A stretch of 64,000 bases of DNA from Microcaldota archaeon (GCA_016212525.1 JACRGD010000010.1:372001-436000), one strand, 5' to 3'; positions 6,636-62,642 are shown, counted from the first letter of the stretch. Translations and numbers: made by a program. Notes: generated from the letters alone by a model not told the origin.

Positions 6636-6720
6636 TTTATGACCTAAGGATAAAGATCATACAAGGTATTTAAAGCCAGTTAAACCAAAATCTCAGTGCT
6701 GAAATTCGAGATGGGATCTT

Positions 6721-6948
6721 TATGCTCCTGCCGGGATTTGAACCCGGGTCCTCAGAGTTCTCTGTCCAAAACTTTTTCTTTTTGGGATAGAACACTTTTT
6801 CTTTCCAAAAGAAAAAGGGTCTTGAGAGTCTGATATCCTTGACCGGTATGTCCAACTTATTCGACTGTAATCGACCCAAGGGCTTTTTGGTTGAGTTTTT
6901 TTGCCCTAAGTTAGTCATCAGTCAAAAAAGTCACTAGACTACAGGAGC
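6721..6948 (-). tRNA. tRNA-Glu(CTC), interrupted by two predicted introns (D-loop about 6848-6933; anticodon 37/38 at 6756-6822)
   Basis: GCTCCTG/CAGGAGC acceptor, TCAGA-CTCTCAC-TCTGA anticodon arm, CCGGG-TTCAAAT-CCCGG T arm; predicted mature length 75 nt; TATA-like box on the minus strand at about 6974-6985. Confidence 0.85.
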
Positions 6949-7041
6949 TTAGTAAGAGAAGTTAGTCTCAAAGGCTTTATAAAATTAGATAGTTCGAACG
7001 AGTATAAGAAACAGATGAAAAAGAAGAGAAAAAAGATAAAA

Positions 7042-7326
7042 TTATTGTGGATCGATTATTACGTCCTCGTTTGCCAGAACCAGATCATTAGTCTGAACAA
7101 CAGTAGTATCATTTTCGGATACGAAACGAGATCTATAGTCATTTACAACCACATCATCGTTCGCCAACAAAGGCTCAGAGGGCGGTGCTTGAGGTGTAAT
7201 GTCCGAATCGCCCAAATTGGCAACTGGGTTAGACTTCGCTTCGGTTTTAACACAACCAAAGAGTAAAAGTAGCGCCAGAGTACCAAGCAGAAGGATGTTT
7301 TTATTAATCGTCATTTTGTCTTTCAC
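7042..7326 (-). CDS. Small secreted lipoprotein
   Basis: Signal peptide with lipobox LLLLFGC; 94 aa. Confidence 0.6.
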   Translation of the reverse strand: MKDKMTINKNILLLGTLALLLLFGCVKTEAKSNPVANLGDSDITPQAPPSEPLLANDDVVVNDYRSRFVSENDTTVVQTNDLVLANEDVIIDPQ

Positions 7327-8368
7327 CTCTAATCTGGTTCATCATCCCACCTCTTGAAGAACCATTCATCCGCCCATTTGTCCGGTTCTTGAGCTGATCT
7401 CTCATTTCCTGAGCCCGCTCGCGCATAGTGTTTTGCATTTTTTCCCGGGTGTCATGGACAATCTGTTGGATTTCATCTGATGCGGATTTTATATTATTCC
7501 AGACATTCGCCTTTGATTCGTCAGTATATTTACCGTCATCGACAGCGATAAGTGCTGCGCTTGCACGACTAAGATAACCACGAGCAATCTGAATCTTCTC
7601 GCTACTTACGTTTGATGCGTTACTTGATTCGATCTTACTTAATATCAAGTCGAGTTTTTCGATCTCGAACTTCGCGGCAAGGTGGAAATCAGTGCCATTT
7701 CCGCAACCATCGAACATACAATAAGACTTACCTGCAGCCCGAATAAGTTTTGCAGTATCGGCGCTACCAAGGTCGTTTCTTAATGGACCAATAACAACTG
7801 AACGCGCTTTAGAAACCAAATCACGAAGCGAATCCACATTAACGCCTTTTTGTCCCAGGTCGTTTATTTTCCGATCAAGATCATCAAGATATTTACCATA
7901 GGCATCTGCTTTAGTGTTCACAAAAGACCTTACAGCAGCGACATGACAGGAATCATAAGTGCTCCGAAGCTGATCATACTGGGCCCTAAGTGAGACACGA
8001 GTAGAATTGTCCAGGTTAGAACCCCGCCTGACTAAATTCAGTTGTGCTTTAGCTGCACGCGCGTCGGGTTCATAAGTGGATCTTAAATAGGACCTAAAAT
8101 TCTCAGTATCATTGGAATTTGCATAGGACTGAAGCTGGGCAGTATCTTGAGCCAATTTGTCAATTGTAGAAGACAAATTAATGCTCGAATTAGGAACAGC
8201 TGCAATAAAATCGGAAATGACACCGACGTTAAAGTCAGTCTTGCATTTAACATCAGCCATTACCGAATCCAAATGACCATTTCTCAATACGCCTACACCC
8301 TGGGGAACTGCAAAAGCCAATGGCAGGCCCAAGAGCAACAGGAATAATATTCCGTATTTCTTTTCCAT
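7304..8368 (-). CDS. Secreted, largely helical protein of unknown function
   Basis: N-terminal signal peptide MEKKYGILFLLLLGLPLAFA; long Asp/Arg/Ser-rich helical body; 354 aa. Confidence 0.7.
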   Translation of the reverse strand: MEKKYGILFLLLLGLPLAFAVPQGVGVLRNGHLDSVMADVKCKTDFNVGVISDFIAAVPNSSINLSSTIDKLAQDTAQLQSYANSNDTENFRSYLRSTYEPDARAAKAQLNLVRRGSNLDNSTRVSLRAQYDQLRSTYDSCHVAAVRSFVNTKADAYGKYLDDLDRKINDLGQKGVNVDSLRDLVSKARSVVIGPLRNDLGSADTAKLIRAAGKSYCMFDGCGNGTDFHLAAKFEIEKLDLILSKIESSNASNVSSEKIQIARGYLSRASAALIAVDDGKYTDESKANVWNNIKSASDEIQQIVHDTREKMQNTMRERAQEMRDQLKNRTNGRMNGSSRGGMMNQIRGERQNDD

Positions 8369-8410
8369 AATTAAATCACCTTTATTTCATGCATTGAAGT
8401 TATGCTGAAT

Positions 8411-8494
8411 TGGAACGCTATATATAGATTTTCTGGAACGAGCGTGGAACAAGTGGAACAAAGCACGTCGAAACGGACAAAAGAAGTGTGGAAC
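8411..8494 (-). promoter_or_regulatory. Promoter region with five GTTCCA(C/G) repeats around a TATATATAG box, upstream of the 7304-8368 gene
   Basis: Plus-strand GGAAC at 8412, 8435, 8446, 8455, 8490; TATATATAG between the first two. Confidence 0.55.
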
Positions 8495-8536
8495 AATAGT
8501 AAAACACAAGAGCCGTAGAGCAAATATCCAAAACAA

Positions 8537-8956
8537 TTAAAGAGTACCTAATGAGGTGAGATCTTTTTGTCTCAGTAGATTTTCCAAGGATAGGAATTTA
8601 GGACTTGGAAGATCGTTTAGTGCGAACCATTTCCATTCTTCACATTTATGAGGTTCGAGGATTCTGGATTCTCCCTCGAATTGCTTGGCTAGAAGAAAGA
8701 GAGTCACATAGTGTTCTTTTTCATTTTCAAAGAAATCACTAGTTAGGGCAAAATGCTCCAAATCATGAACTATGATCCCGGTTTCTTCAAGAACTTCACG
8801 CCGAGCACAGTCTTCTGGAGATTCACCGAATTCCAAACGGCCTCCAGGAAATGCCCAACTTCCGCTCCCGTGCGAATTCTTCCTCTTGCCTAGCAGAATC
8901 TTGCCGTTTCGAATTAGCATAACTCCAACGCCAACCTGGGGATACGGAGAGTTCAT
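8537..8956 (-). CDS. Nudix hydrolase
   Basis: Nudix box GGRLEFGESPEDCARREVLEETGI. Confidence 0.95.
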   Translation of the reverse strand: MNSPYPQVGVGVMLIRNGKILLGKRKNSHGSGSWAFPGGRLEFGESPEDCARREVLEETGIIVHDLEHFALTSDFFENEKEHYVTLFLLAKQFEGESRILEPHKCEEWKWFALNDLPSPKFLSLENLLRQKDLTSLGTL

Positions 8957-9940
8957 TTAGGCACCACGCCCAGTATCGATTAGATTAGTCAAACTCACAA
9001 GATTTCGAATCCCCTTCTGACTTTTCTGTATAATTCCTTTGCTCTCAAGAGATGCGATTCTACGCGAAAGAGTTGCTTTTGGAATATGAGTGTTTAAATT
9101 CAAATCTGCCTGAGTCGTTGTCCCTCCTTTAGAAACCAAATAACGAACGATATCCTGATCAGTCTGATCCAGAGTTTTGAAGACGGGGTTTGTATCCAAA
9201 GAAGGTGAATTTGGAGAGAGATGCTTTGGAGATTCGATAGGAGTCGGAACAGTTAGAGATTCTTGGGGCGGTGAAGATTGGCTTGTAGGAACAGTGGGCT
9301 TTGAAATCACAGGTTTTTCTTTTGAGAGATAAAAGAACCCAGCAACGAGTATAATCAAAATGATACTCCCACCGATAAGAAAGAAGGAATTGGAATCAGA
9401 AACAGGAGTCTGATCGATATCATAGCTCGCAGTCATTAGAGCTCTCTGGTTAGGTAAAAGATTCGAAAATTCCCATTCTATCGAAAGCTGATCGCCCGAA
9501 CTGGTAACCTGCCCATTGGTAGAACGTAAAGTCGCACCTTTGGGAAGCAGAACTTTGGCAACAAGAAGAGAGAGATTAGTATCTGAACCTAGCTCGAAAC
9601 GATATAACCATAGAGTGCCGTTCTTTGAGGTAAGACTGTCAGATTCCAGATAATAATCAAGGGAATTATATGGAACAATAGTGGTTATTGTAGCCAACCC
9701 GTTTTGAGAGCCGTTCTCAAATGACAGTGCAATACCAGAGCCGTCTTTTACAGAAACGATTTTTCCAAGTGCATTCGAGCGGATTGTCAAAGGCTTGCCT
9801 GAAAGCGAAGAGGATGACCCGGATACCTCCATACTTAGGTAAGAATGGCCCGAGCCATCTAGAATATTGGCAACGTAGAGATTCGTAGAGAAGACAACTG
9901 CAGCAAACAATAAACAGATGAGAAGGAATTTCCTCATCAA
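8957..9940 (-). CDS. Membrane-anchored MarR-like winged-helix regulator with extracytoplasmic N-terminal domain
   Basis: Signal/TM N-terminus, central TM (FFLIGGSIILIILVAGFFYL), C-terminal HTH (DIVRYLVSKGGTTTQADLNLNTHIPKATLSRRIASLESKGII). Confidence 0.75.
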   Translation of the reverse strand: MMRKFLLICLLFAAVVFSTNLYVANILDGSGHSYLSMEVSGSSSSLSGKPLTIRSNALGKIVSVKDGSGIALSFENGSQNGLATITTIVPYNSLDYYLESDSLTSKNGTLWLYRFELGSDTNLSLLVAKVLLPKGATLRSTNGQVTSSGDQLSIEWEFSNLLPNQRALMTASYDIDQTPVSDSNSFFLIGGSIILIILVAGFFYLSKEKPVISKPTVPTSQSSPPQESLTVPTPIESPKHLSPNSPSLDTNPVFKTLDQTDQDIVRYLVSKGGTTTQADLNLNTHIPKATLSRRIASLESKGIIQKSQKGIRNLVSLTNLIDTGRGA

Positions 9941-22949: not shown

Positions 22950-24323
22950 TTAGTTTACGATGCATGCCCCGTTTAAACAGTGCTGACCAATCGGACATTG
23001 AACTTCCTGAGCAAACGATCGATTGGATTGACAAGAATAAACACTTACAACCCGATCTGAAACACATCGATCAAAATAGGTTCCAGTGATGCTGTTTTCA
23101 TCAGTAACTATGACCTGACTTATATTGTATTGATGGAGATCGTAACAGCCCCGGCTCCTTATTTTTTGGCACGAGTCATCAAGGCATATTTCGCTATCAC
23201 TGCATCGATCGATTTTTTCGCTAATTATATTTGAGTCGCACGTATAAGCCCGTGCTTTTCTATAATCAATGCAGGTTGCATTTTTCTGAATCAGCAGTTC
23301 AGTACCCCGATAAAGTTGTGCATCGCCATTGCCAACACCACCAGTAGTACAAGTTACTTCATTGTAGTTTAGGCATCGGCCATCATAACAACCAATAGAA
23401 CAGTCTGCGGATATGCTTTCTATAGTATCCTGATCCGTGCAGTAGAATTCGGTTAGAGTCTTATTATCACCAAGACAGTAATCAGTATAGTTAGTTTCAC
23501 CCAATTGAACAGATCCCTTCCAACCGTAGTTCTGAGCAGTGTCGGTTTCGAGGCATACGCCAACACAGGCACCAAGATTACAGAAAGTACCCACAGGACA
23601 TTTCAGATCGGCCTCCTGAACAGTTCCGTTTTGGCATGAATAGGACTTTTTGCTTTCTTTTCCAAGACAAATGTCGGAATATGTCCTAAGCGCCCTGCCA
23701 CCACCATACTGAGTCGTAACTCCCGAAAGAGACTGATCGTTTGCATTTGAATCCACACAAGTTTTCTCCTGCAAAACACAAGCACCAGATTCACAACGAT
23801 AACCAGTCCCACAATTTGTAGTTACGGAAGTTGCATTTCCATTTTCACAGAAGTATTCGGTTAAATCATATATTCCCAGGCATTTGTCAGCATAACGAAT
23901 CGAACCAAAATTAATCTCGCCAGCCTGCTCGAAAAATTTGCCGCCGTCGCTGTCGATGCAGCCACTACCGGAAATAGCAGTTGTTCGATTGTCTGGTGAG
24001 GAGGATTGTGATCCATTGACACACTCACCCCCGGAGCAGATTTTACCAACAGGACACGTTATTTGTGTATCGAGTCGGGTATTTTGATCGCAGATGTGTG
24101 CAATCAAAACCGAAGCATCTTGACAGGTGTTGAGTTCGATCGTACCAGAATCATTCACACCGTTGGGCAAGGAGATACAATAGGAAGAATCTCCCAACGT
24201 CCCATTTGGATAAGTAGAATTGACTAGAGATCCGTTTTTTGTCGTATTGGTTTTTGAAGAACCCCCAACACAACCGAACAGAAGTACAAGAAACAGCCCA
24301 AGGAAAAGAAATATTTTGCGCAT
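22950..24323 (-). CDS. Cys-rich repeat lipoprotein
   Basis: Lipobox LVLLFGC; about 7 repeats of a C-D-x-D-...-Y-x-D-x-C-L-G-...-Y-x-C-...-C-P-x-G-x-x-C-x-x-G-A-C module. Confidence 0.8.
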   Translation of the reverse strand: MRKIFLFLGLFLVLLFGCVGGSSKTNTTKNGSLVNSTYPNGTLGDSSYCISLPNGVNDSGTIELNTCQDASVLIAHICDQNTRLDTQITCPVGKICSGGECVNGSQSSSPDNRTTAISGSGCIDSDGGKFFEQAGEINFGSIRYADKCLGIYDLTEYFCENGNATSVTTNCGTGYRCESGACVLQEKTCVDSNANDQSLSGVTTQYGGGRALRTYSDICLGKESKKSYSCQNGTVQEADLKCPVGTFCNLGACVGVCLETDTAQNYGWKGSVQLGETNYTDYCLGDNKTLTEFYCTDQDTIESISADCSIGCYDGRCLNYNEVTCTTGGVGNGDAQLYRGTELLIQKNATCIDYRKARAYTCDSNIISEKIDRCSDSEICLDDSCQKIRSRGCYDLHQYNISQVIVTDENSITGTYFDRCVSDRVVSVYSCQSNRSFAQEVQCPIGQHCLNGACIVN

Positions 24324-25408: not shown

Positions 25409-28400
25409 ATGAGAAAAATTTTGTTTGTAGTAGCATTGGGAATAATATTTTTATCGAACATCAGCTTCGCTCTCACAAATATTGCAAATTGCACTGAAGC
25501 CGCAAGCATGATTGTTACACCAGACACATATCGGCTCAATGCGTCGATAAATAGTACATTCTATGACACCGCAACAACCATCCCGTTAAGTGAAAGTTGC
25601 ATAGTCATAAATAGTTCAGACGTCTTATTAGACTGTGATTCTAACTACCTCAATAGTTCTGGGTCTGCAGCCGCAGTTCCAATTGGGATATTAGTAAATG
25701 GAACGAATTTTCAAAATGTTACAATCACAAATTGTCGGATTGACGGTTATCAATATGGTATTGCAGTAAGATCGGTTACTTTTGAGGGAAACATAACAAA
25801 CAGTATCATTTTCAATACCCAAAACGGCATTTTTGTTAACGATAGTTCGATTTTTGAGGTCAGAAATAACACGATATCTAGCACCATAAGACCAATAACA
25901 TTTTCAAATTTAAGTAGTTCATTTGTTCAGTATAATTCAATTAATGGCACTTATGCGGCCAAGTTTGGGATAAATCTCACCCAGTCCAACATAATCCAAA
26001 CCCATGAAAACAACATTTCTTCAGTAACAAATAACAGCGGGGGCAGCCCAGGAGTTGCAATTTATCTTTCCCGAACTAACAATAGTTACGTCCAAAACAG
26101 CAGGGCATTCGATAACATATACGGTATATATTCTCAAGACTCACACTCAAACATTTATCTAACAAATGAGGTCTTTAATAGCACAATTGGAGGAGTTGTA
26201 TTAAACATTTCAAATTACAGTGTTTTCCAGTATGTAAATTCTTATCTTAGCGGCGATGATGGATTCCTTCTTTCGAATTCGCACTATAATAATTTTACCT
26301 GGGACAATGCATATAACAACAGTGTTGGTTTTAATTTGGGCCAAAGTTCAACTAACAACCTCATCCATAATAGCAGTGCTTACAACCACAACTCAACAGG
26401 ATCACAGACGGGATATTATTTTCAGAATTCCCCCTCAAACTCAATTATGGATTCGAACGCATCTCTAAATGGCAATTATGGATTCTATATTTTCGATTCA
26501 GATTATAGCGTAATTAGAAATAATATTGCAGATTCCTCAGCAGCATATGGTTTCAGCGTTGACACGTCAAACTACGTTAATCTAACCCTTAATAATGCCC
26601 ACAACAACAGTTTGGATGGTTTTTCATTCAGTATGACAAACGGAACCACAATTAGTCAAAATCAAGGAGGAGATAATGCCGAATATGGATTCTACTTCTT
26701 CTCACAAAACAATTATTCGACATTTGAGGGAAACACCGCATTTTCAAATCCAGTAGCAGTTCAAATCCTAAATGCATCGTATTCCAATTTCAGCTCAAAT
26801 ACGCTCGAGAATAATTCGGAAGTTGGTTTCAACATCTCGTATTCTTCCAACTTTAACAATTATCAATACAACAAATTGTCTCATCTTTCAAACACCGGTT
26901 TTTCAAAACCAGGAGGCGCAGGCCAGGGTAGCAATTTCACATACAACAATATCACAAACACAACCACCGGACTAAGCATCTCACTCTTAAATGCAAATAT
27001 ATCGAATAATCGGGTTGGAGATAACAGCAACGGGATTATCAGTTCAGGCAGTTCAAATAGTATTGATTCGAATTATGTTTTCAATAATTCAGTAGTAGGA
27101 ATTAGAATCATCTCAGGAGCCACAGACACAGCCAGACACAACACCCTGATAAATAATACTCTGGCAATTCAGGCCTATGATTTAACAGGCTCGAATACAG
27201 TCTACAATAATACAGCAACATCAGGCACGGTCGGTTTCCAAATCGGAGGTTCTGGAGCAACGACAAACATCAACGTATCTAGTAACACAGTAAACAGTAA
27301 TTACGTCGGATTCAATTTAACCTCAATAACTACATCAACAATTGAAAGGAATACAGCCAGTAACAGTAACACTTACGCATTCGTGCTCAACTCGGCAAAC
27401 CAAACCAATGTTTCATCAAATACAGCAAATATCAGCTCAATTGCAATGTATCTCCTCAACACCACCAACACATCGATCTCCAATGATCATTACTTTAACA
27501 CATCAACAGCAGGACTTCGCTTCAACAGCAGCAGTATAGATGGAGCAACGATCAACTTAACTGGAGTATCATTTGACAGTCCAACAGGAGGGTATACAAG
27601 TTATCAGAATATTTCACTCTACGATACTGCAGCCAATGAAACATCTTACGACATACTCTGGACGCCCTCACCTGCAGGAGCACCCTCAAGAGCAACTTCG
27701 TTTGAATCCAAATATATTAACATAACCAATTATTCGGCAGCAACAATCGACTCATTTAATGTTCTATGGACAGGATCCGAAGCCTTTAGTTATGATGAAA
27801 CTTCACTAAAATTGTACAGATATAGTGCCGGAGCATGGGCAGAAGTAAGCGGATCAACATTGGCCACAGAATCTAACCAAATCAGCTCAACACCATCAAC
27901 ATTTGGAACATTCGCAATATTCGCAGTAACAGCACCAGCCTCAAGCTCAGATGGAACAACCAGAAGAACCCCAAGATGCAGCTTTGATTCAGAGTGTGGA
28001 GATTCGGAAACATGCATAGCAGGAATGTGCACTCCACTAACATGTACTGCACCTGAAATAGCACGAAGTCACGTATGTGTAGCGCCACCAACGCCAGCAT
28101 GCACAGTAGATACAGAGTGTGGAGATTCGGAAACATGCATAGCAGGAATGTGCACTCCACTAACATGTGTAGCTCCAGCAACTGCAAGATCTCACGCGTG
28201 TGTAGCACCAATAGCACCAGAGTGTAGATTAGACACAGATTGTGCAATAACAGAAACTTGTAGAACTGGAATGTGCACGCCTATCAGTTGTCCGTTGGGC
28301 AGAATAACAGACCACAGATGCATAGTCATACCAATAAATGGAACTACCCCATTAACACCAGAATGCAGATCGGACTCGGATTGTTCACCAAGCAGCGCAT

Positions 28401-28975
28401 GTAGCAGAGGTGCAGATGGAACCAGTATCTGTACACCAGTAGGGCAAGCCAGTGCATGTGGAGAAATAAGAGACCATAGATTCGTAGCATTTGCATGCGG
28501 AAGTGAACCTGGATGTAGTCCTTGTGGAACCGGATTTACCTGTCAAAGTCACAGATGTGTTGCGCCGGATCTGTTGGTTCCAAATAGAACAACAACAGGA
28601 TCTGAAGAGCAATTAAGAACGATACTGGGAAGTGCGCCATTGCCAAACGGAGCAATAAGAATAACTGACCCATCTGGACGTACAACGACAATAAACACAG
28701 ACTCGGCAGGACTCGCAAGATACAGATTTACGAGAACCGGAGCATATAGAGTTGAACTTATACAGGACGGAAAGGTCGTCAGAACAACAAACATCAACGC
28801 AGTTTCTGGAAGAGGCAGTGGAAGTCTTGAAGAAGTCCTTGCAGCAATCGCAGATGCAGTAGTCAATTACTGGTGGCTAGTATTACTGATCATAGTAGGT
28901 GCAGGGTATCTGCTATATAGAAGACACCTGGAACATCAGGAAGGGAATGGTCGTACACGCAAAGACCGGGAATAA
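25409..28975 (+). CDS. 1188-aa surface protein: parallel beta-helix (NosD/PbH1-like) repeats, Cys-rich repeats, C-terminal TM anchor
   Basis: Signal peptide; dozens of N-x-x-x-x-N-x-x-x-G-F/I-x-L repeats and NxS/T sequons; CGDSETCIAGMCTPLTC repeats; TM YWWLVLLIIVGAGYLLYRR. Confidence 0.88.
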   Translation: MRKILFVVALGIIFLSNISFALTNIANCTEAASMIVTPDTYRLNASINSTFYDTATTIPLSESCIVINSSDVLLDCDSNYLNSSGSAAAVPIGILVNGTNFQNVTITNCRIDGYQYGIAVRSVTFEGNITNSIIFNTQNGIFVNDSSIFEVRNNTISSTIRPITFSNLSSSFVQYNSINGTYAAKFGINLTQSNIIQTHENNISSVTNNSGGSPGVAIYLSRTNNSYVQNSRAFDNIYGIYSQDSHSNIYLTNEVFNSTIGGVVLNISNYSVFQYVNSYLSGDDGFLLSNSHYNNFTWDNAYNNSVGFNLGQSSTNNLIHNSSAYNHNSTGSQTGYYFQNSPSNSIMDSNASLNGNYGFYIFDSDYSVIRNNIADSSAAYGFSVDTSNYVNLTLNNAHNNSLDGFSFSMTNGTTISQNQGGDNAEYGFYFFSQNNYSTFEGNTAFSNPVAVQILNASYSNFSSNTLENNSEVGFNISYSSNFNNYQYNKLSHLSNTGFSKPGGAGQGSNFTYNNITNTTTGLSISLLNANISNNRVGDNSNGIISSGSSNSIDSNYVFNNSVVGIRIISGATDTARHNTLINNTLAIQAYDLTGSNTVYNNTATSGTVGFQIGGSGATTNINVSSNTVNSNYVGFNLTSITTSTIERNTASNSNTYAFVLNSANQTNVSSNTANISSIAMYLLNTTNTSISNDHYFNTSTAGLRFNSSSIDGATINLTGVSFDSPTGGYTSYQNISLYDTAANETSYDILWTPSPAGAPSRATSFESKYINITNYSAATIDSFNVLWTGSEAFSYDETSLKLYRYSAGAWAEVSGSTLATESNQISSTPSTFGTFAIFAVTAPASSSDGTTRRTPRCSFDSECGDSETCIAGMCTPLTCTAPEIARSHVCVAPPTPACTVDTECGDSETCIAGMCTPLTCVAPATARSHACVAPIAPECRLDTDCAITETCRTGMCTPISCPLGRITDHRCIVIPINGTTPLTPECRSDSDCSPSSACSRGADGTSICTPVGQASACGEIRDHRFVAFACGSEPGCSPCGTGFTCQSHRCVAPDLLVPNRTTTGSEEQLRTILGSAPLPNGAIRITDPSGRTTTINTDSAGLARYRFTRTGAYRVELIQDGKVVRTTNINAVSGRGSGSLEEVLAAIADAVVNYWWLVLLIIVGAGYLLYRRHLEHQEGNGRTRKDRE
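27990..28168 (+). repeat. Two identical 56-bp copies at 123-bp period (27990-28045 and 28113-28168) within the Cys-rich domain
   Basis: cagagtgtggagattcggaaacatgcatagcaggaatgtgcactccactaacatgt in both copies. Confidence 0.85.
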
Positions 28976-54715: not shown

Positions 54716-54848
54716 AATATGACCTCTAATGTCGAATAAAACGGAAAATAATTGTCCCAAAGAGATTTTAAATCACCGTCCCAGAACTCCAAACGAACCA
54801 GCTGTCTAATAATAGGTGATTTATTCCTTACGCCCCAGGAATTTAATT

Positions 54849-55865
54849 ATGAGAACTGCTACGTTACGTTCATTGGCCATTTGTAGTGCTTTGGCGATTT
54901 CAAGTCCAAAACCCGCATCAGTGCATCTTCCACTTGGCGAAGGAATTGTGTATGCACAACCAAGAGGACCGCGAACCCCGGCGCTCCCTCAAGACGTTCT
55001 GGCATCGACGATTGCAGTAAATCGAGAGGCAGATACCATATTTGCAGCTGCCTCAGACAACGCAGGCAGATTAAGAGCAATGCACAGCCGAAATAGAATT
55101 GGAGGAACCCAACGCATGACTGGCAATGCAAACATCACAACAAATACCCCAGATCAATCACTTGCACTACGCCAGATCGACTGCACCAACGGCACAATTT
55201 TGTTCCTTGCATTAGTTCGAGCGATGAACGAACGACATGATGCAGGAATCGATGCGCATGCACTCATAATCCGACGAGCAGGAGCAAGTGTAGACCACGG
55301 AATTGTAGTTGCCAGGGACGGCTCGCAAACAGTAAACATCGATCCAACTTCATCAGTGTTCGGACAGATCGGAGACGGACAAAATACTTATACGCGTGTA
55401 CTCGAATATCCGGATTTGACTAGTTCAGCAGCACTTTTCTATAGGCAAATTGGAATACGGCTAACTCCAAGCAGACGAACCGATGCAATAGCTGCGTTTG
55501 AACGTGCGGACGAACTGTTTAACCGGGATGCCGCAGTATTAGAAGGTCTTGGTGATCTTTACTTCGATCGGGGCAGAGGAGATCTTGCCCGTTCATTTAC
55601 ATATCACGCACGAGGCCATGCAATCGATCCGACACGATATAGTGCGGAAAAATGGAATACGATTAATGCTAATGAGGAGTATCGACTAGGCACAGAGTCA
55701 TTTGGACGACGCGAATTTGCAGCATGCAGAGAACACTTCGCAGCTGCAGGAAGACACTTGAGAGCGGCTGGAGACACAACTTCAGACATGGTAGCTTCGG
55801 CCAATACTAATCAGGCAGCATGCGAGCGAAATGATCGGATAACTTCGAGGGATGCAGGACGATAA
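54849..55865 (+). CDS. Secreted TPR-like protein
   Basis: Signal-like N-terminus; AFERADELFNRDAAVLEGLGDLYFDRGRGDLARSFTYHARGHAIDP TPR-like units. Confidence 0.6.
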   Translation: MRTATLRSLAICSALAISSPKPASVHLPLGEGIVYAQPRGPRTPALPQDVLASTIAVNREADTIFAAASDNAGRLRAMHSRNRIGGTQRMTGNANITTNTPDQSLALRQIDCTNGTILFLALVRAMNERHDAGIDAHALIIRRAGASVDHGIVVARDGSQTVNIDPTSSVFGQIGDGQNTYTRVLEYPDLTSSAALFYRQIGIRLTPSRRTDAIAAFERADELFNRDAAVLEGLGDLYFDRGRGDLARSFTYHARGHAIDPTRYSAEKWNTINANEEYRLGTESFGRREFAACREHFAAAGRHLRAAGDTTSDMVASANTNQAACERNDRITSRDAGR

Positions 55866-56118: not shown

Positions 56119-56805
56119 CTAAAACACTTTTTCTCCGACATAAACCTTGATTCCCTGAGGAGTAACCTTAAATGGAGTCAAATCACGAGAATGATCAGTT
56201 CCCCGCATCTTAAAGATTTCCAATGCCCGGATGCGCCGATCTTCGCGATCAAGATTATAGAGGTTGAAAATTCCATCCATGACAAAGTGTTCAATGTCAA
56301 ATCGAATGTCTTCTTTCTTTGGACTTGTTGCCTCAACAGTAGTTATAGTAGTAACATCCAAGTTTCGCAAGAGAGAGAGGAATTCGAAAAGAGTCTGACG
56401 ATATTCCATGTCATTTTCAAAAGACAACCGAATCATAGTTGCAGAATCGATAACTGCCCTTCGAACATTGTTGCTGGTGATGCGATCTTCCAAAAGATTC
56501 GCAACTTCATCAAGCTCCAGTTTCTCTGGCTTGACGATCTCCATCTTATTTGAAGAGATCATCTGATCCACATCGCTAATAAGCGGAAATGTGTTTTTCA
56601 TATTGTCCAAAATATCGTCTTTGGTTTCTTCCAATGTTATGTAAAGACCATTCTCACCCATTTTGGCACCTCGATAGAGATACTCAAAACAAAAGGAAGT
56701 TTTACCCGAACCCGGACCTCCGTAGAGTGCAATATGTCGTCCCTGAGGTATTCCACCATTGAGCATTTCGTCTAATCCTGAAATTCCTGTTTTCACTCGA
56801 TCCAT
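56119..56805 (-). CDS. KaiC/RecA-like ATPase
   Basis: GISGLDEMLNGGIPQGRHIALYGGPGSGKTSFCFEYLYRGAK; LYITLEET. Confidence 0.93.
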   Translation of the reverse strand: MDRVKTGISGLDEMLNGGIPQGRHIALYGGPGSGKTSFCFEYLYRGAKMGENGLYITLEETKDDILDNMKNTFPLISDVDQMISSNKMEIVKPEKLELDEVANLLEDRITSNNVRRAVIDSATMIRLSFENDMEYRQTLFEFLSLLRNLDVTTITTVEATSPKKEDIRFDIEHFVMDGIFNLYNLDREDRRIRALEIFKMRGTDHSRDLTPFKVTPQGIKVYVGEKVF

Positions 56806-56876
56806 TTTCTCACGTGCTGATTCTAAGCAGATAAAATTTATATAGTTTGATTCCTATCCTCAAATGGAGTTTTTTT

Positions 56877-57833
56877 ATGTTTAATCACATTTTACCCTGG
56901 AGCGAGAAGTACAGGCCACAGAAACTTTCTGATGTAGTAGGGCAGGAAGATATTGTCAAGAGCCTAAAGGCATTTGTCGAGGCAAAAAACATGCCCAATT
57001 TGCTCTTTGCCGGACCTCCGGGAGTCGGTAAAACCACATGCGCAGTAGCACTTGCAAAAGAACTTTTTGGCGAAGGATTTAGCGCAAATTTTCTTGAATT
57101 AAACGCAAGTGATGATCGAGGCATCGATGTTGTGCGTGGAAAAATAAAGGACTTTGCCAGATCCGTTTCAATTGGAGATGTTCCATTTAAGCTGATTTTT
57201 CTTGACGAAGGAGATGCACTAACAACAGACGCACAGCAGGCATTAAGACGGACAATGGAATCCAGCTCCTCAGTAACCCGATTTATAATTTCAGCCAACT
57301 ATTCCTCGAGAATAATCGATCCGATACAGAGCAGATGTGCAGTCTTTCGATTCATGCCACTAAAAGAAGAATCAGTAGTGTCTTCACTTGAAAAAGTCTG
57401 TGTTGCCGAAAAGCTACCGCACGATTTGGAAGCATTAAAGACAGTATATTATGTAAGCGAAGGAGACATGCGAAAAGCACTAAACGTACTTCAGAGCTCT
57501 GCGATGCAGGCCAAGAAAATAACTTCGGAAGTAGTGCACAAGATAAGCAGCAGAGCAACTCCAGTCGAAGTAAAGCAACTGGTCGAACTTGCAGTTGCGG
57601 GCAATTTCATGGGCGCACGGGAAAAACTCGATTCACTACTCATAAACTACGGCCTTAGTTCAGAGGACATCCTGCTTCAAATATATCGGGAGATCCCAAC
57701 CATCGCGATAGATGAAAAATCCAAAATCAAGATCGTCGCCGCGGTAGGAGAATGTAACTTCAGACTTGTTCAGGGAGCCAATGAAAGAATACAGATCGAA
57801 GCGCTAATCGCGCAGATGGCGCTTCTCAAATGA
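56877..57833 (+). CDS. rfcS: Replication factor C small subunit
   Basis: PWSEKYRPQKLSDVVGQE; FAGPPGVGKTTCAVALAKEL; LNASDDRGIDVVRGKIKDFA; FLDEGDALTTDAQQALRRTME. Confidence 0.97.
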   Translation: MFNHILPWSEKYRPQKLSDVVGQEDIVKSLKAFVEAKNMPNLLFAGPPGVGKTTCAVALAKELFGEGFSANFLELNASDDRGIDVVRGKIKDFARSVSIGDVPFKLIFLDEGDALTTDAQQALRRTMESSSSVTRFIISANYSSRIIDPIQSRCAVFRFMPLKEESVVSSLEKVCVAEKLPHDLEALKTVYYVSEGDMRKALNVLQSSAMQAKKITSEVVHKISSRATPVEVKQLVELAVAGNFMGAREKLDSLLINYGLSSEDILLQIYREIPTIAIDEKSKIKIVAAVGECNFRLVQGANERIQIEALIAQMALLK

Positions 57834-57879
57834 GGCGAATTTTCTGAGACAAAATTGGTCAAGAAGATCATCACTACTA

Positions 57880-58605
57880 TTGGTACCATTATTAGTGGCA
57901 ATAGTAGCGATCATTGTATTAGTGCCAGCAGGATTTGCATCAAAAATAGTTGCACCGGAATTTCTAGGTCAGCACGATTTTGGACAAATTAACCTAAGTC
58001 AATTTACATATTCAATAAGTATCAACTGCGATCGATCATATATCGACTTTTATGTTTATGATGGTGATCTTAAGCCAGTACAGGGAGCCAAAACATTTCT
58101 CTCATACGTAGATTATAGTTCGCCACTGCTGTCTAACGACATAACAGATGAAAAAGGACATATTGACATCCCCCTGCGCGGCAACACGACTTTCATGAGG
58201 GGCCTCTTTACGATGCTGATAGAAAAAAAGGGATTTAAGAGCAAGGAATTCCAGTTTCGCATAACTCCATGCTATAGCGACATCAAGACGCCCGCAACAC
58301 CGCCTCCGGCCCAAACAGGAATACCGAATAAAAACCCAACAACCCCGATAACCCAGATACCCGAACAGAAACCAGCCATCAACCCTCCAAAAAGCAATCA
58401 AACTAACCTAAATTCCACAGTAAATACATCAAATTCTTCGTCAATAGAACAGATTTGGATAACCTGGCTCAATTCATCGGACAAAAACACAACACAAAAA
58501 TGGAACGAAATTAGTAATTATGTCGATCGGGCACTCTGTTTAGCACCTGCAGCCCTATTTTCCACTATTTTACTCTTTTTCTTACAAAAAGCATATCTTT
58601 TTTAA
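57880..58605 (+). CDS. Secreted/anchored protein with Ig-like beta domain, Pro/Thr linker and C-terminal TM; paralogue of the 60619-61284 product
   Basis: N-terminal signal (probable TTG start), KIVAPEF...SINCDRSYIDFYVYDGDLKPVQGAKTFL...TDEKGHIDIPLRGNTTFMRGLFTMLIEKKGFKSKEFQFRITPC. Confidence 0.7.
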   Translation: MVPLLVAIVAIIVLVPAGFASKIVAPEFLGQHDFGQINLSQFTYSISINCDRSYIDFYVYDGDLKPVQGAKTFLSYVDYSSPLLSNDITDEKGHIDIPLRGNTTFMRGLFTMLIEKKGFKSKEFQFRITPCYSDIKTPATPPPAQTGIPNKNPTTPITQIPEQKPAINPPKSNQTNLNSTVNTSNSSSIEQIWITWLNSSDKNTTQKWNEISNYVDRALCLAPAALFSTILLFFLQKAYLF

Positions 58606-58628
58606 ATCGTCCAAACCAATACTTTCCT

Positions 58629-60611
58629 ATGAGAAAGTACCTATTGATACTTATATTAGCAGCAAGCTTGATGGTTTTTGGTTGTGTTTTGCCTAATGGC
58701 GGCGACAACACCACAGGCTGTACTAAAGAACTTGTTCCAGTTTGTGGAAAGGATGGCAAAACATACGATAACGCATGTCTTGCAAGAGCCGCAAATGTTG
58801 CGATAGCATCCAATGGAGCATGTCCTATATCGACTAACACTTCAGTATGCGCAGACACGGACTTTGGCCGGGACACCCAGGTCAAGGGAGTTGCAACTGA
58901 GGGCAATCTAAATAAAGTCGATCAGTGCATGGGATCCAACACAATATTGGAGTATTATTGTGCATACGGCCACATCGCAAACCAATCAATATCCTGTCCA
59001 AACGGATATAGATGCAACGATGGCGCATGCTACTTACCAAACAACCAGACACCAACAGGAAACACTTCAGACCAAAACGGAGTCCCAACTTCAAATCTTT
59101 GTCAGGACACGGACAACGGAATGAGCTATTTTATTCAGGGTAGAACAACTCAATCGGGAACAGTTCGAATGGACGAATGTTCACGATTCGATTCAGTTCG
59201 TGAATTTTACTGTCAGAACAACGCAATCCAGAATGTTATTTATCAATGTCCAAGCGGCTATGCATGCAGCAATGGAGCATGCGTAGTAACTTCAAATAGA
59301 TGTACAGATACAGATGGTGGACGTGAACCAAATGTTCGAGGTCAGGTGAACGTAGTTGGAATGACATACACTTCAACAAGCAATGATGTATGTACCGACA
59401 GCAGACACGTACGCGAATACACCTGTAATTCAGAGGGAAACCCAGAATCTGAAGTAATAACCTGTTCTTCAAGCAGAGTTTGTGAAAACGGAGTATGTAC
59501 AATAACTGATTGTACAGACACAGACGAATCGAACTCGATTTATATTCGCGGAACGGTCGAACGGGGATCTGAAAGAAATCCGGATTTCTGTAATACCGAA
59601 GGAGGAACATCAGGAGTAGAATATTATTGTAGAGACAACAACATCAGAACCCAGGACTTTAGCTGCCCATCAGGATATGTATGTCGTGATGGCAGATGTC
59701 AGGCAACTGGCTCAAGTCCATCATGCAACGATCCAGATGGAACAGATACATCTACAGCCAGAACAGTAACAAAAGGATCGGAATCTGCAACTGATTCGTG
59801 CATATCGAGCGACCCGAACAAGGTTCGAGAGAGAATCTGTAACTCAGCAGGTAATATCGATTATACCGATATTTCATGCGCTTCGGGTTATCATTGCGGC
59901 GATGGTGCATGTGTCCGAGATACCGCACCAGTACCAGTAACATATAGCTGTGTCGATGGAGATGCTTCCAGCGGAGGCGTTTCAGCACAGGCAGGAGTTA
60001 CCTCTTCGGTTACTATAAGCGGATCTGACGGATATAGATCGACAACGGACGATGGCTGTGATGGTGATGGAGTCAAAGAAGCATACTGCAGTTCAGCGAC
60101 AGCATCATTCGCATCTTCGACCACAGTTCCATGTGGAGACGGATACTCGTGCCGATCGGCAAGATGCACAAGTGTCTGTGAACGACCTGTTGATCCAACT
60201 GCATCAGACCCATTAGTCCGAGGAACCAGATATTACGGTGGTGAAACATATGCAGATATCTGCGATGGCACAACTGGAGTCAAGAAATATGTCTGCTCAG
60301 GTGATTCGACAGGAGGCTCAACCATAGTAGCCTGCCCGTCAGGATATTCTTGTGATGCCTCAGATCCGGGCAGATGCACACCTTCAGCACCAGCGGCATG
60401 CTTTGATTCTGACGGAGGAGGAGCCACATTTACAGCAGGATATGTCATCGAAGGAGGCATAACCTATGATGATGTTTGTGGCGGAGATGGAATTAGCCTG
60501 ACTGAGCAGGTCTGTGGAGGCACAATACCTACAGATTGTAGAGCAATATATGGATTATCTTGCCTCACAGATAGTTCAGATCCAAGCCACCCACGAGGAT
60601 ACTGCGGATAA
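58629..60611 (+). CDS. Cys-rich repeat lipoprotein with N-terminal Kazal-like domain
   Basis: Lipobox ASLMVFGC; Kazal-like CTKELVPVCGKDGKTYDNACLARAANVAIASNGACP; then about 9-10 Cys-rich modules CxDTDxG...YxC...CPSGYxCxxGxC. Confidence 0.85.
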   Translation: MRKYLLILILAASLMVFGCVLPNGGDNTTGCTKELVPVCGKDGKTYDNACLARAANVAIASNGACPISTNTSVCADTDFGRDTQVKGVATEGNLNKVDQCMGSNTILEYYCAYGHIANQSISCPNGYRCNDGACYLPNNQTPTGNTSDQNGVPTSNLCQDTDNGMSYFIQGRTTQSGTVRMDECSRFDSVREFYCQNNAIQNVIYQCPSGYACSNGACVVTSNRCTDTDGGREPNVRGQVNVVGMTYTSTSNDVCTDSRHVREYTCNSEGNPESEVITCSSSRVCENGVCTITDCTDTDESNSIYIRGTVERGSERNPDFCNTEGGTSGVEYYCRDNNIRTQDFSCPSGYVCRDGRCQATGSSPSCNDPDGTDTSTARTVTKGSESATDSCISSDPNKVRERICNSAGNIDYTDISCASGYHCGDGACVRDTAPVPVTYSCVDGDASSGGVSAQAGVTSSVTISGSDGYRSTTDDGCDGDGVKEAYCSSATASFASSTTVPCGDGYSCRSARCTSVCERPVDPTASDPLVRGTRYYGGETYADICDGTTGVKKYVCSGDSTGGSTIVACPSGYSCDASDPGRCTPSAPAACFDSDGGGATFTAGYVIEGGITYDDVCGGDGISLTEQVCGGTIPTDCRAIYGLSCLTDSSDPSHPRGYCG

Positions 60612-60618
60612 ATGCAGG

Positions 60619-61284
60619 TTGATCTTCGTGCGATTTTTCTTTTTAATTTTTATTTCTCTTTTTGTCTTAGTTGCATTCACTCAGACTTCTTTTGCAAGGA
60701 TAGTAACCCCGGAATATAATCAGGTAAAGGAAACAGGCAGCGAATCACTGCCCTCGCTTGATCCGGCAATGCGAATTGAATGTGATGACAAAAACATAAT
60801 GACAGTTGTATCTGATTTTAGATCTAATTTGCCAGTAGCAAATGCGCAGGCATATCTATTCAATACCAATTATGGCTACAATTTTCTCTATCGAAACTCC
60901 ACCGATGAATCAGGAAGAGTAAGCATACACGCACTGGGAAATCTCAACTTTCTCACGGCTCTATTTATCATGCGAATCGATGCTCCAGGCTATCGGACAA
61001 AGGAGATCGAATTTACGTTTAGCAGGTGTTTCGATTCATCTGAATCAGAACCAAATCCTGCACCAACAACTCCGACGCCTGAACCAACACCCACACCACA
61101 AGTAGAACCCACACCAGTCCCGCAACCCACTCCAATAATTAATCCTCCAACGCCGAGCGCTACTAACTCATCAACAAGACCAGCTACACAACCCGCATCA
61201 CCATGCCCATTGCCTCTTGGTTTAATTATTTTGCCTTTAATTTACTCAATATGCGAATCGAAGAAGACTTTATCGGCAAGGTAG
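60619..61284 (+). CDS. Secreted/anchored paralogue of the 57880-58605 protein (start uncertain)
   Basis: In-frame TTG at 60619 gives a signal peptide (IFVRFFFLIFISLFVLVAFTQTSFA); RIVTPEYN...MRIECDDKNIMTVVSDFRSNLPVANAQAYLFN...STDESGRVSIHALGNLNFLTALFIMRIDAPGYRTKEIEFTFSRC; Pro/Thr linker; C-terminal TM. Confidence 0.7.
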   Translation: MIFVRFFFLIFISLFVLVAFTQTSFARIVTPEYNQVKETGSESLPSLDPAMRIECDDKNIMTVVSDFRSNLPVANAQAYLFNTNYGYNFLYRNSTDESGRVSIHALGNLNFLTALFIMRIDAPGYRTKEIEFTFSRCFDSSESEPNPAPTTPTPEPTPTPQVEPTPVPQPTPIINPPTPSATNSSTRPATQPASPCPLPLGLIILPLIYSICESKKTLSAR

Positions 61285-62642
61285 AAGTAAAAGAAGATGC
61301 TTATTTTGGCTCATTCACAACCAGAGCCCAGAAAACATTTCAAATTAGTCCGTACAAAGTTCATAAAGAAATCACATATGCAGTGGCAACGATCAAAAAA
61401 TGTGCTGCAATTACAAACTCCGAATTGGGAGTGCTCGAACCGCGCATTGCAAAGGCGATAGTCTCTGCTGCAAACGAAGTAATTTCAGGGAAACATGATG
61501 ACCAATTCGTTCTTGATGCCTACCAGGCAGGAGCCGGAACACCACTACACATGAATGTGAACGAGGTCATTGCAAACCGAGCAGAAGAGATTTTAGGTGG
61601 AAAGAAAGGCCAATACAAAATAGTGCACCCAAACAACCACATTAATCTGGCACAAAGCTCGAACGACGTAGTTCCGACTTCGATACGAATCGCATCAAAC
61701 CTTAGCTGTCACAAGTTGCTCAAGGAAGCCAAAGAAATTCAGAAAACATTATCGGAAAAAGGCAAAAAATACAGAGCTACGATCAAGATCGGCCGGACTC
61801 ACTTGCAGGATGCAGTGCCAATGACATACGGCCAAACATTTGATGCATGGGCAAGAGCAGTGGAAAAAGACATCATTGCGATTGAAGAAGCACTACTTCA
61901 CATTAGTGAACTTGGAATTGGTGGCACTGCAACGGGAACAAGCATCACTGCGCATCCAAAGTTTGCGCAAAAGATCGTCGCGCAGATTTCAAAAGAAACC
62001 AAAGTTGCATTTATTGCTGCTGAAAATAAAGTTGAAACAACCCAGAATATGAATGATTTTTTGCCCCTTTCAAGTGCACTAAGACAGTATGCAACTACAT
62101 TAAACCGGATGGCTGATGACCTGCGACTTCTTGTAAGTGGACCAAAAGGAGGCATTGCAGAAGTTATTTTACCGGAAATCGAACCGGGTTCATCCATCAT
62201 GCCAGGTAAGATAAACCCATCCGTCCCCGAAGCAGTAAACATGGTTTGTTGGAGAGTCATGGCAAACGACCTAACCGTTTCGCTGGCAGTTTCATCGGGA
62301 CAACTCGAACTCAATTTCGGAACTCCAATTATCGGATTTTCGCTTCTTGAGAGCATTAGTTTACTTACCAACACCACCAGAGTATTCGAGGGTGAGTGCA
62401 TAGCAGGTTTAGAAGTTGATGAGAAGAGGGCAAAAACCAATTTCGACAATTCGCTCTGCTACGCAACGGCATTCAATCCATATTTGGGATATTCACTAGT
62501 TTCGAAGCTGGTGCGATCCGCACTCAAAGAAGGAGTTAGCCTGAAGGAACTGATAGTAAAGGACGGTCATCTTAGCAAATCAGAAGTAGAGAACATAATT
62601 GAAAGTTCAATTGGCCCATCAGCAAACGATCGTAAAAAGTAA
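61251..62642 (+). CDS. Fumarase class II/aspartate ammonia-lyase superfamily enzyme
   Basis: GSSIMPGKINPSVPEAVNMV signature; NVNEVIANRAEEIL; HPNNHINLAQSSNDVVPTSIRIA; start at 61251 (MRIEEDFIGKVEV). Confidence 0.95.
   Translation: MRIEEDFIGKVEVKEDAYFGSFTTRAQKTFQISPYKVHKEITYAVATIKKCAAITNSELGVLEPRIAKAIVSAANEVISGKHDDQFVLDAYQAGAGTPLHMNVNEVIANRAEEILGGKKGQYKIVHPNNHINLAQSSNDVVPTSIRIASNLSCHKLLKEAKEIQKTLSEKGKKYRATIKIGRTHLQDAVPMTYGQTFDAWARAVEKDIIAIEEALLHISELGIGGTATGTSITAHPKFAQKIVAQISKETKVAFIAAENKVETTQNMNDFLPLSSALRQYATTLNRMADDLRLLVSGPKGGIAEVILPEIEPGSSIMPGKINPSVPEAVNMVCWRVMANDLTVSLAVSSGQLELNFGTPIIGFSLLESISLLTNTTRVFEGECIAGLEVDEKRAKTNFDNSLCYATAFNPYLGYSLVSKLVRSALKEGVSLKELIVKDGHLSKSEVENIIESSIGPSANDRKK

What the first reader, a model, noticed from the sequence alone, without database searches (positions are those of the whole stretch)
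57880..61284. Kazal-like/Cys-repeat lipoprotein flanked by two paralogous anchored proteins
Three consecutive genes encode a beta-domain + Pro/Thr linker + TM protein, a 660-aa lipoprotein with a Kazal-like inhibitor domain followed by about 9-10 Cys-rich modules, then a paralogue of the first gene. The third gene overlaps or abuts the second and apparently uses a TTG start. A protease-inhibitor-like domain on an archaeal surface lipoprotein within such a sandwich looks like an undescribed surface complex, possibly for interaction with or protection from a host or prey.
Basis: partly seen in the sequence, partly recalled or inferred. Interest (0 to 1): 0.65.

Follow-up and report, generated by a model that had tools for sequence, protein, structure and literature searches.

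The report
Archaeal surface-protein trio with Kazal domain
In tiny uncultured archaea (Micrarchaeota), a conserved gene row next to DNA-replication and metabolism genes encodes two sister surface proteins and a cysteine-rich surface rod that often carries a protease-inhibitor domain; their shared cysteine tail looks like an unrecognised tag for anchoring proteins to the cell surface.

Summary
The three genes are real. A (57880-58605) and C (60628-61284) are paralogues: signal peptide, one beta-sandwich domain, Pro/Thr linker, short C-terminal hydrophobic tail. B (58629-60611) is a 660-aa lipoprotein with one genuine Kazal domain (Pfam E 9.6e-9; modelled fold within 0.3 A of leech tryptase inhibitor) and 8, not 9-10, six-cysteine modules. 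The row RFC small subunit > A > (B) > C > aspartase/fumarase-like lyase recurs in Micrarchaeota of the same genus: A and C in 15 of 17 genomes, B beside them in 9; two other genera keep only RFC > A. So A/C is the conserved core, B an optional partner, and Kazal optional within B (6 of 9 loci; P1 residue variable). Kazal presence does not follow the genomes' own subtilases. A host or prey role remains untested.
Unexpected: A and C end in a near-invariant Cys(-Pro), 10-17 hydrophobic residues and a basic end. The same tail sits on unrelated secreted proteins (NosD-like, transglutaminase-like, FecR-like), as a C-terminal sorting tag would. No NCBIfam model recognises it. The genomes tested lack archaeosortase, but nearly all have a CPBP-family protease, the class of myxosortase. 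Tag function and enzyme are inferred, not shown.

The parts
56847..57833 (+). Replication factor C small subunit, first gene of the conserved row
   Evidence: Pfam Rep_fac_C 2.6e-21 and AAA; 65-72% identical genes precede A in relatives
57880..58605 (+). Gene A: signal peptide, beta-sandwich domain, Pro/Thr/Asn linker, Cys tail; start uncertain (TTG 57880 or CTG 57844, or a frameshift after ATG 57830)
   Evidence: AF2 pLDDT 85-98 over the domain; found in 15 of 17 genus genomes
57958..58263 (+). Beta-sandwich domain of A, with two invariant Cys (62 and 143 counted from CTG 57844; the second lies just after this stretch) that probably pair
   Evidence: (invariant columns); Foldseek Ig-like/transthyretin-like neighbours
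58537..58602 (+). C-terminal tail of A: Cys, short hydrophobic stretch, K (candidate Cys-CTERM sorting tag)
   Evidence: Nearly invariant Cys column in 32 A/C proteins; genome survey
58629..60611 (+). Gene B: 660-aa lipoprotein, Kazal domain plus 8 six-Cys modules
58629..58685 (+). Lipoprotein signal peptide of B, lipobox ending at Cys19 (LMVFG-C)
   Evidence: Sequence inspection
58719..58823 (+). Kazal domain of B, residues 31-65: 4 Cys (positions 2, 3, 4, 6 of the classical six); P1 Lys33
   Evidence: Pfam, PDB sequence match, Foldseek 1an1_I rmsd 0.3, 58% identity
58848..60608 (+). Eight six-Cys modules of B, starting at residues 74, 158, 225, 295, 366, 441, 517 and 591
   Evidence: module profile hits; AF2 pLDDT about 90 or more over most of the first two modules
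60628..61284 (+). Gene C: paralogue of A; GTG 60628 start preferred (TTG 60619 possible); its end overlaps the next gene by 34 nt
61204..61281 (+). C-terminal tail of C: Cys-Pro, hydrophobic stretch, basic end
   Evidence: Cys invariant in all 15 C-family proteins
61251..62642 (+). Aspartase/fumarase-superfamily lyase, last gene of the conserved row
   Evidence: NCBIfam PRK12273 subfamily 3.9e-168; 58-62% identical genes follow C in relatives

Best explanation
This is a conserved cell-envelope gene row of one Micrarchaeota genus, held in a tight same-strand run between two housekeeping genes (RFC small subunit and an aspartase/fumarase-like lyase). Shown by sequence and models: A and C are exported-type paralogues, each with one disulfide-capable beta-sandwich domain on a Pro/Thr stalk and a short Cys-led hydrophobic tail; B is a lipobox protein made of eight disulfide-rich beta-hairpin modules with a membrane-proximal Kazal domain; the order is conserved. 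Inferred: A and C are held in the membrane through processing of their Cys tail rather than by an ordinary spanning helix, and B stands beside them as a rod. The intact Kazal loop (P1 Lys) of this copy could block trypsin-like proteases from neighbouring cells near the membrane. The surface-module part is the firm claim; inhibition by this particular Kazal is about as likely as not.
For: Synteny: A and C in 15 of 17 genus genomes, with RFC upstream and the lyase downstream; order A-B-C in five relatives, A-C-B in one, A-B-B/B-C across a contig break in G008, and in G009 B-B-C-lyase kept together after separation from A. Three genomes of two other genera have RFC-A only (L098, L099, L100), so C probably arose by duplication of A. 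Paralogy: hhalign E 4.5e-38. Folds: A domain pLDDT 85-98, Ig-like/transthyretin-like neighbours; B modules mostly pLDDT 90 or more. Kazal; in 12 aligned family members Cys1 and Cys5 are both present or both absent, as expected for a disulfide (inspection). In the window and three relatives' locus copies P2 Thr, P1' Glu and the 7-residue loop are kept while P1 varies (K, E, L, T). Cys tail.
Against: No experiment or complex prediction links A, B and C. B is missing beside A/C in 6 of 15 genomes. Two B proteins at the locus lack Kazal (L084, L085), others have a degenerate one (L081, one B of L096), and two Kazal-bearing paralogues elsewhere have a shortened loop (L105, L107). Kazal presence is not associated with own subtilases: 7 of 79 genomes have both, Fisher p 0.45; within the genus the association is negative, p 0.035, not corrected for relatedness. 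Two A proteins (L085, L091) lack the tail Cys and have longer basic tails.
Confidence: 0.6

Rival explanations
1. The Kazal domain is only a small disulfide-rich structural module (a membrane-proximal spacer or cap of the rod), as in follistatin-type proteins; B is an adhesion or spacer rod and inhibits nothing.
For: Kazal is lost in some B genes and the reactive loop is shortened or divergent in others; it lies next to the lipid anchor, not at the tip; no link to own subtilases.
Against: In the window copy the loop length, P2 Thr, P1 Lys and P1' Glu are canonical, with 58% identity to an active inhibitor.
Confidence: 0.4
2. A and C are ordinary single-pass membrane proteins (S-layer or envelope stalks, comparable to the beta-sandwich domains of Sulfolobus SlaB), and the Cys before the tail has no special role.
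For: The combined A/C profile weakly matches SlaB of the Sulfolobus S-layer (8QOX chain B, E 0.0025; C alone 0.019). A C-terminal hydrophobic stretch with basic end is the plain feature of a membrane anchor.
Against: The SlaB match covers only about 50 residues of a generic beta-sandwich motif and is absent with A alone. The Cys is nearly invariant over otherwise variable tails, the hydrophobic stretch is often only 10-15 residues, and the same tail occurs on unrelated proteins.
Confidence: 0.35
3. The adjacency of A, B and C is accidental gene order without common function; only A has an ancestral place next to RFC.
For: B is optional and its module family is scattered over the genome (33 module hits in this genome).
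Against: B is repeatedly found at this place, and stays beside C in G009 after A and C were separated. Two C proteins have gained Cys-rich repeats of their own (L083, L092).
Confidence: 0.15
4. Kazal of B restrains the organism's own secreted subtilases.
For: This genome has three subtilase-domain proteins.
Against: No co-occurrence in 79 genomes and a negative trend within the genus.
Confidence: 0.07

Closest known systems
Kazal-type serine protease inhibitors (Pfam PF00050/PF07648), especially leech-derived tryptase inhibitor and turkey ovomucoid third domain
   Same: Sequence profile, predicted fold, loop spacing Cys2-x7-Cys3, P2 Thr / P1' Glu as in ovomucoid, P1 Lys as in the leech inhibitor
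   Different: Only four of six Cys (the Cys1-Cys5 pair is missing); placed just after a lipoprotein anchor and before eight unrelated Cys modules; inhibition untested
CGP-CTERM of Thermococcales and MYXO-CTERM of Myxococcota (tripartite tags with an invariant Cys)
   Same: Cys-led motif, hydrophobic stretch, basic end, carried by unrelated secreted proteins
   Different: Motif here is C-P, C-C or C-x, not CGP; different phylum; no NCBIfam CTERM model reaches its cut-off (best MYXO-CTERM E 0.08, 13.3 bits against 20)
SlaB, membrane anchor of the Sulfolobus S-layer
   Same: Exported, C-terminally anchored, beta-sandwich domain; weak profile match
   Different: SlaB has three beta-sandwich domains and a long C-terminal helix forming a trimeric coiled coil (PMC10903991); A and C have one domain, a low-confidence Pro/Thr linker and a short tail
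Other six-Cys-module lipoproteins of Micrarchaeota
   Same: Module profile hits in 46 of 146 genomes of the phylum; a second one lies in this window at 22950-24323
   Different: No Pfam model exists; B of this locus is one member, distinguished by its place between A and C

Membership tests
Kazal-type inhibitor domain | Profile match above curated cut-off | tested here: met
   PF00050 35.6 bits against cut-off 21; PF07648 26.9 against 22.8
Kazal-type inhibitor domain | Six Cys in a 1-5, 2-4, 3-6 pattern (classical form) | tested here: not met
   Four Cys only; Cys1 and Cys5 missing together, as in about half of the aligned relatives. It is a reduced, non-classical Kazal, still above the family's profile cut-off
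Kazal-type inhibitor domain | Canonical exposed reactive loop between Cys2 and Cys3 | tested here: met
   C-TKELVPV-C, 7 residues; model superposes on LDTI at 0.3 A over 36 columns
Kazal-type inhibitor domain | Inhibits a serine protease | not testable with these tools
   Needs an enzyme assay
Archaeal lipoprotein | Signal peptide with lipobox ending in Cys | tested here: met
   MRKYLLILILAASLMVFG-C19 by inspection; lipidation itself untested
C-terminal Cys sorting tag (CGP-/MYXO-CTERM kind) | Invariant Cys, hydrophobic stretch, basic end | tested here: met
   Cys invariant in 15 of 15 C proteins and at 90% or more in 32 A/C proteins
C-terminal Cys sorting tag (CGP-/MYXO-CTERM kind) | Same tail on unrelated exported proteins of one genome | tested here: met
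   9 of 16 candidates in 1.36 Mb of this genome, p 8e-7; 7 of 14 without A and C, p 4e-5; G010 5 of 12 without C, p 0.002; families include NosD, transglutaminase, FecR. The selection rule is home-made
C-terminal Cys sorting tag (CGP-/MYXO-CTERM kind) | Match to an existing CTERM model | tested here: not met
   No CTERM model over its cut-off in 18 proteins
C-terminal Cys sorting tag (CGP-/MYXO-CTERM kind) | Dedicated processing enzyme in the genome | tested here: inconclusive
   No exosortase/archaeosortase PF09721 in 21 genomes; CPBP PF02517 in 20 of 21, but CPBP also in 11 of 14 controls; rhomboids in 14 of 21
S-layer anchor of SlaB type | Sequence homology to SlaB | tested here: inconclusive
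   E 0.0025 over about 50 residues of a common motif; none with A alone

The most novel reading that the evidence does not exclude
Micrarchaeota possess an undescribed C-terminal protein-sorting system: exported proteins end in a Cys(-Pro/-Cys) tag with short hydrophobic stretch and basic end; the Cys is lipidated and the tail is cut by a CPBP-family membrane protease in place of an archaeosortase. A and C are conserved substrates, displayed beside the N-terminally lipidated rod B that carries a working Kazal inhibitor.
Probability: 0.25. Interest if true: 0.68.

Novelty: new variant of a known kind. Interest (0 to 1): 0.47.

Why it matters
How DPANN archaea fasten proteins to their surface is poorly known, and these surface proteins decide how they meet other cells. 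A tail shared by unrelated proteins, with candidate enzymes named and archaeosortase not found, gives a direct test in a group for which no sorting system turned up in the papers searched. The locus also supplies an archaeal Kazal domain with an intact reactive loop and related copies with damaged loops, a natural set for asking whether prokaryotic Kazal domains inhibit proteases or only build structure.

Tried and rejected
Naming the organism by scanning GTDB contigs with B alone gave nothing; the A-family alignment worked and returned Micrarchaeota MAGs. The first Pfam call failed on a wrong frame for C and was repeated. A first B alignment failed on coordinates. The module alignment was too variable for a viral-contig scan, so spread beyond the phylum is untested. 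Foldseek gave no significant PDB match for the Cys modules; weak chitin-binding-type hits (Avr4, prob 0.6-0.7, E about 1) and 2 of 24 modules hitting TILa (best E 0.001) were not accepted as homology. MEF2 hits of the A profile were dismissed as chance. Own-subtilase regulation was tested and not supported. A SlaB relationship was kept only as a lead.

Full report
WHAT IS THERE. The window lies in a 1.47-Mb genome bin (G000:C8:372001-436000) whose named relatives are mostly Candidatus Micrarchaeota MAGs. The finding's three genes are real and run on the + strand. Gene A begins just after the replication factor C small subunit (56847-57833). B follows A by 23 nt. C follows B by 7 or 16 nt, depending on the start (TTG 60619 or GTG 60628), and C's end lies 34 nt inside an aspartase/fumarase-superfamily lyase (61251-62642). 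A KaiC-like ATPase gene points the other way upstream (56119-56805).

GENE B. The protein has a lipobox Cys at residue 19, a Kazal domain (Pfam PF00050 E 9.6e-9; leech-derived tryptase inhibitor in the PDB E 2.9e-8) and eight modules of exactly six Cys each. An AlphaFold2 model of the Kazal domain plus two modules has mean pLDDT 83.8, mostly 90 or more in the modules. Foldseek places the Kazal part on 1an1_I with rmsd 0.3 over 36 columns and 58% identity; the modules have no convincing PDB relative, no accepted Pfam model and no PDB profile match better than E 0.85. The module profile finds 33 copies in this genome and hits in 46 of 146 genomes of the phylum.

THE KAZAL DOMAIN IN DETAIL. The window copy has four Cys (positions 2, 3, 4 and 6 of the classical six). 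Over the 12 aligned relatives the missing pair, Cys1 and Cys5, is always present or absent together, as expected for a disulfide (by inspection). The loop C-T-K-E-L-V-P-V-C has canonical length, with Lys at P1. In three relatives' copies at the same locus the surroundings are kept and P1 differs (Glu in L083, Leu in L082, Thr in L086). In L084 and L085 the Kazal is absent, in L081 and one of the two B proteins of L096 it is degenerate, and in paralogues elsewhere (L105, L107) the loop is shortened. Kazal hits above cut-off occur in 27 of 79 relatives and in none of 14 control genomes. They do not track the genomes' own subtilases: 7 genomes have both, 20 Kazal only, 19 subtilase only, 33 neither; Fisher p 0.45. 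Within the genus the association is negative (2, 9, 5, 1; p 0.035), without correction for relatedness. So the domain is real and may inhibit in this copy, but its role is not fixed across the family, and control of the organism's own subtilases is not supported.

GENES A AND C. The two families align over the whole domain (hhalign probability 100, E 4.5e-38). Each has one beta-sandwich domain with two invariant Cys, modelled at pLDDT 85-98, with Ig-like, macroglobulin-like and transthyretin-like neighbours at low identity. A profile of A plus C has a weak match to SlaB, the S-layer anchor of Sulfolobus (8QOX chain B, E 0.0025; identity of the entry from PMC10903991). It covers a generic stretch of about 50 residues and is absent for A alone, so it is a lead only.

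CONSERVATION. A and C are found in 15 of 17 genomes of the genus. The gene map shows KaiC | RFC > A > B > C in L081, L082, L083, L085 and L086, followed by the lyase in all but L086 (L082 has one more small gene before it); A > C > B > lyase in L084; A > C without B in L089, L090, L092, L093 and L094; A > C with a different lipoprotein upstream of A and a divergent subtilase gene in L091; RFC > A > B > B / B > C > lyase across a contig break in L087/L088; and in G009 RFC > A at one place (L095) and B > B > C > lyase about 14 kb away (L096). Three genomes of two other genera (L098, L099, L100) have RFC > A only. This supports A as ancestral, C as a duplicate, and B as an optional neighbour that stays with C. 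In L083 and L092, C itself has gained short Cys-rich repeats.

AN UNEXPECTED SHARED TAIL. A and C end in Cys, often Cys-Pro, followed by 10-17 hydrophobic residues and a short basic end. The Cys is invariant in 15 C proteins and at least 90% conserved in 32 A and C proteins. To see whether this is a general tag, 1.36 Mb of this genome and 578 kb of G010 were scanned by a fixed rule (signal peptide, no other membrane segment, short C-terminal hydrophobic stretch, basic end of at most 14 residues). With the duplicate of C removed, 9 of 16 candidates here have a Cys at the head of the stretch (about 8% expected; p 8e-7), 7 of 14 without A and C (p 4e-5), and 5 of 12 in G010 without C (p 0.002). 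The carriers are unrelated: NosD-like beta-helix proteins (C8:177163, C3:116435), transglutaminase-like proteins (C5:197710; G010:C9:343795), a FecR-like protein (C5:41851) and proteins without a match. No CTERM model of NCBIfam reaches its cut-off. The rule was chosen after seeing the first lists, so the p values for this genome are optimistic; G010 outside the A/C region is the fairer test.

WHO MIGHT PROCESS IT. Exosortase/archaeosortase (PF09721) was not found in 21 genomes. CPBP proteases (PF02517) are in 20 of 21 and rhomboids in 14 of 21, but both are also common in control genomes, so this only lists candidates. The precedent is myxosortase, a CPBP protease that processes the Cys-containing MYXO-CTERM tag (PMC11980579), and the Thermococcales CGP-CTERM tag, speculated to be lipid-modified (PMC4870337).

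HOW IT PROBABLY WORKS. Shown: exported-type proteins, domains, order, shared tail. Inferred: A and C are fixed to the membrane through the processed Cys tail; B is fixed by its N-terminal lipid with the Kazal next to the membrane and the modules outward; the three are displayed together. Whether this Kazal blocks proteases from other cells or only builds the base of the rod is open; I put these at roughly even odds.

KNOWN OR NEW. Kazal domains, archaeal lipoproteins and Cys-containing C-terminal tags are known kinds. The A/C family, the six-Cys module (no Pfam model) and the Micrarchaeota form of the tag were not found described in the libraries and papers searched; that search covers only openly licensed papers. 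I file it as a new variant of a known kind.

Noticed in passing
G000:C8:177163-178083, 271844-272407, 351574-352383; C5:41851-42783, 197710-198993; C3:40718-41218, 116435-117406; G010:C9:248597, 343795, 418680, 467687, 519144: Unrelated exported proteins share a C-terminal Cys (CC, CP or Cx), short hydrophobic stretch and basic end: a candidate sorting tag of Micrarchaeota.
   Followed up: partly
window 22950-24323 (-): A second lipoprotein built of the same six-Cys modules, without Kazal domain.
   Followed up: partly
G000:C8:626889-628724 (in L102): A paralogue of B (685-aa open frame) with a Kazal domain (P1 Ser) and several modules elsewhere in the genome; another Cys-module frame lies nearby at 623796-624620.
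   Followed up: partly
window 54816-55865 (+): Exported protein with a weak TPR match and Cys/His/Asp spacing suggestive of a transglutaminase-like fold; distant homologues occupy the same neighbourhood in L082, L084, L090 and L093.
   Followed up: no
window 57830-57880: The ATG that overlaps the RFC stop (as in relatives) reads MRRIF then stop; gene A continues in another frame. Either a non-ATG start or a one-base indel near a TTTT run.
   Followed up: partly
L091 (G007:C105), 7239-9671 (+) and 6311-7159 (-): In one relative a subtilase gene and a different lipoprotein sit between RFC and A.
   Followed up: no
L083:3121-3957 and L092:9575-10369: Two C proteins carry extra short Cys-rich repeats between the beta domain and the tail.
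   Followed up: no
window 25409-28975 (+): 1188-aa exported beta-helix-like protein with short Cys-rich repeats and an ordinary C-terminal membrane helix without Cys.
   Followed up: no
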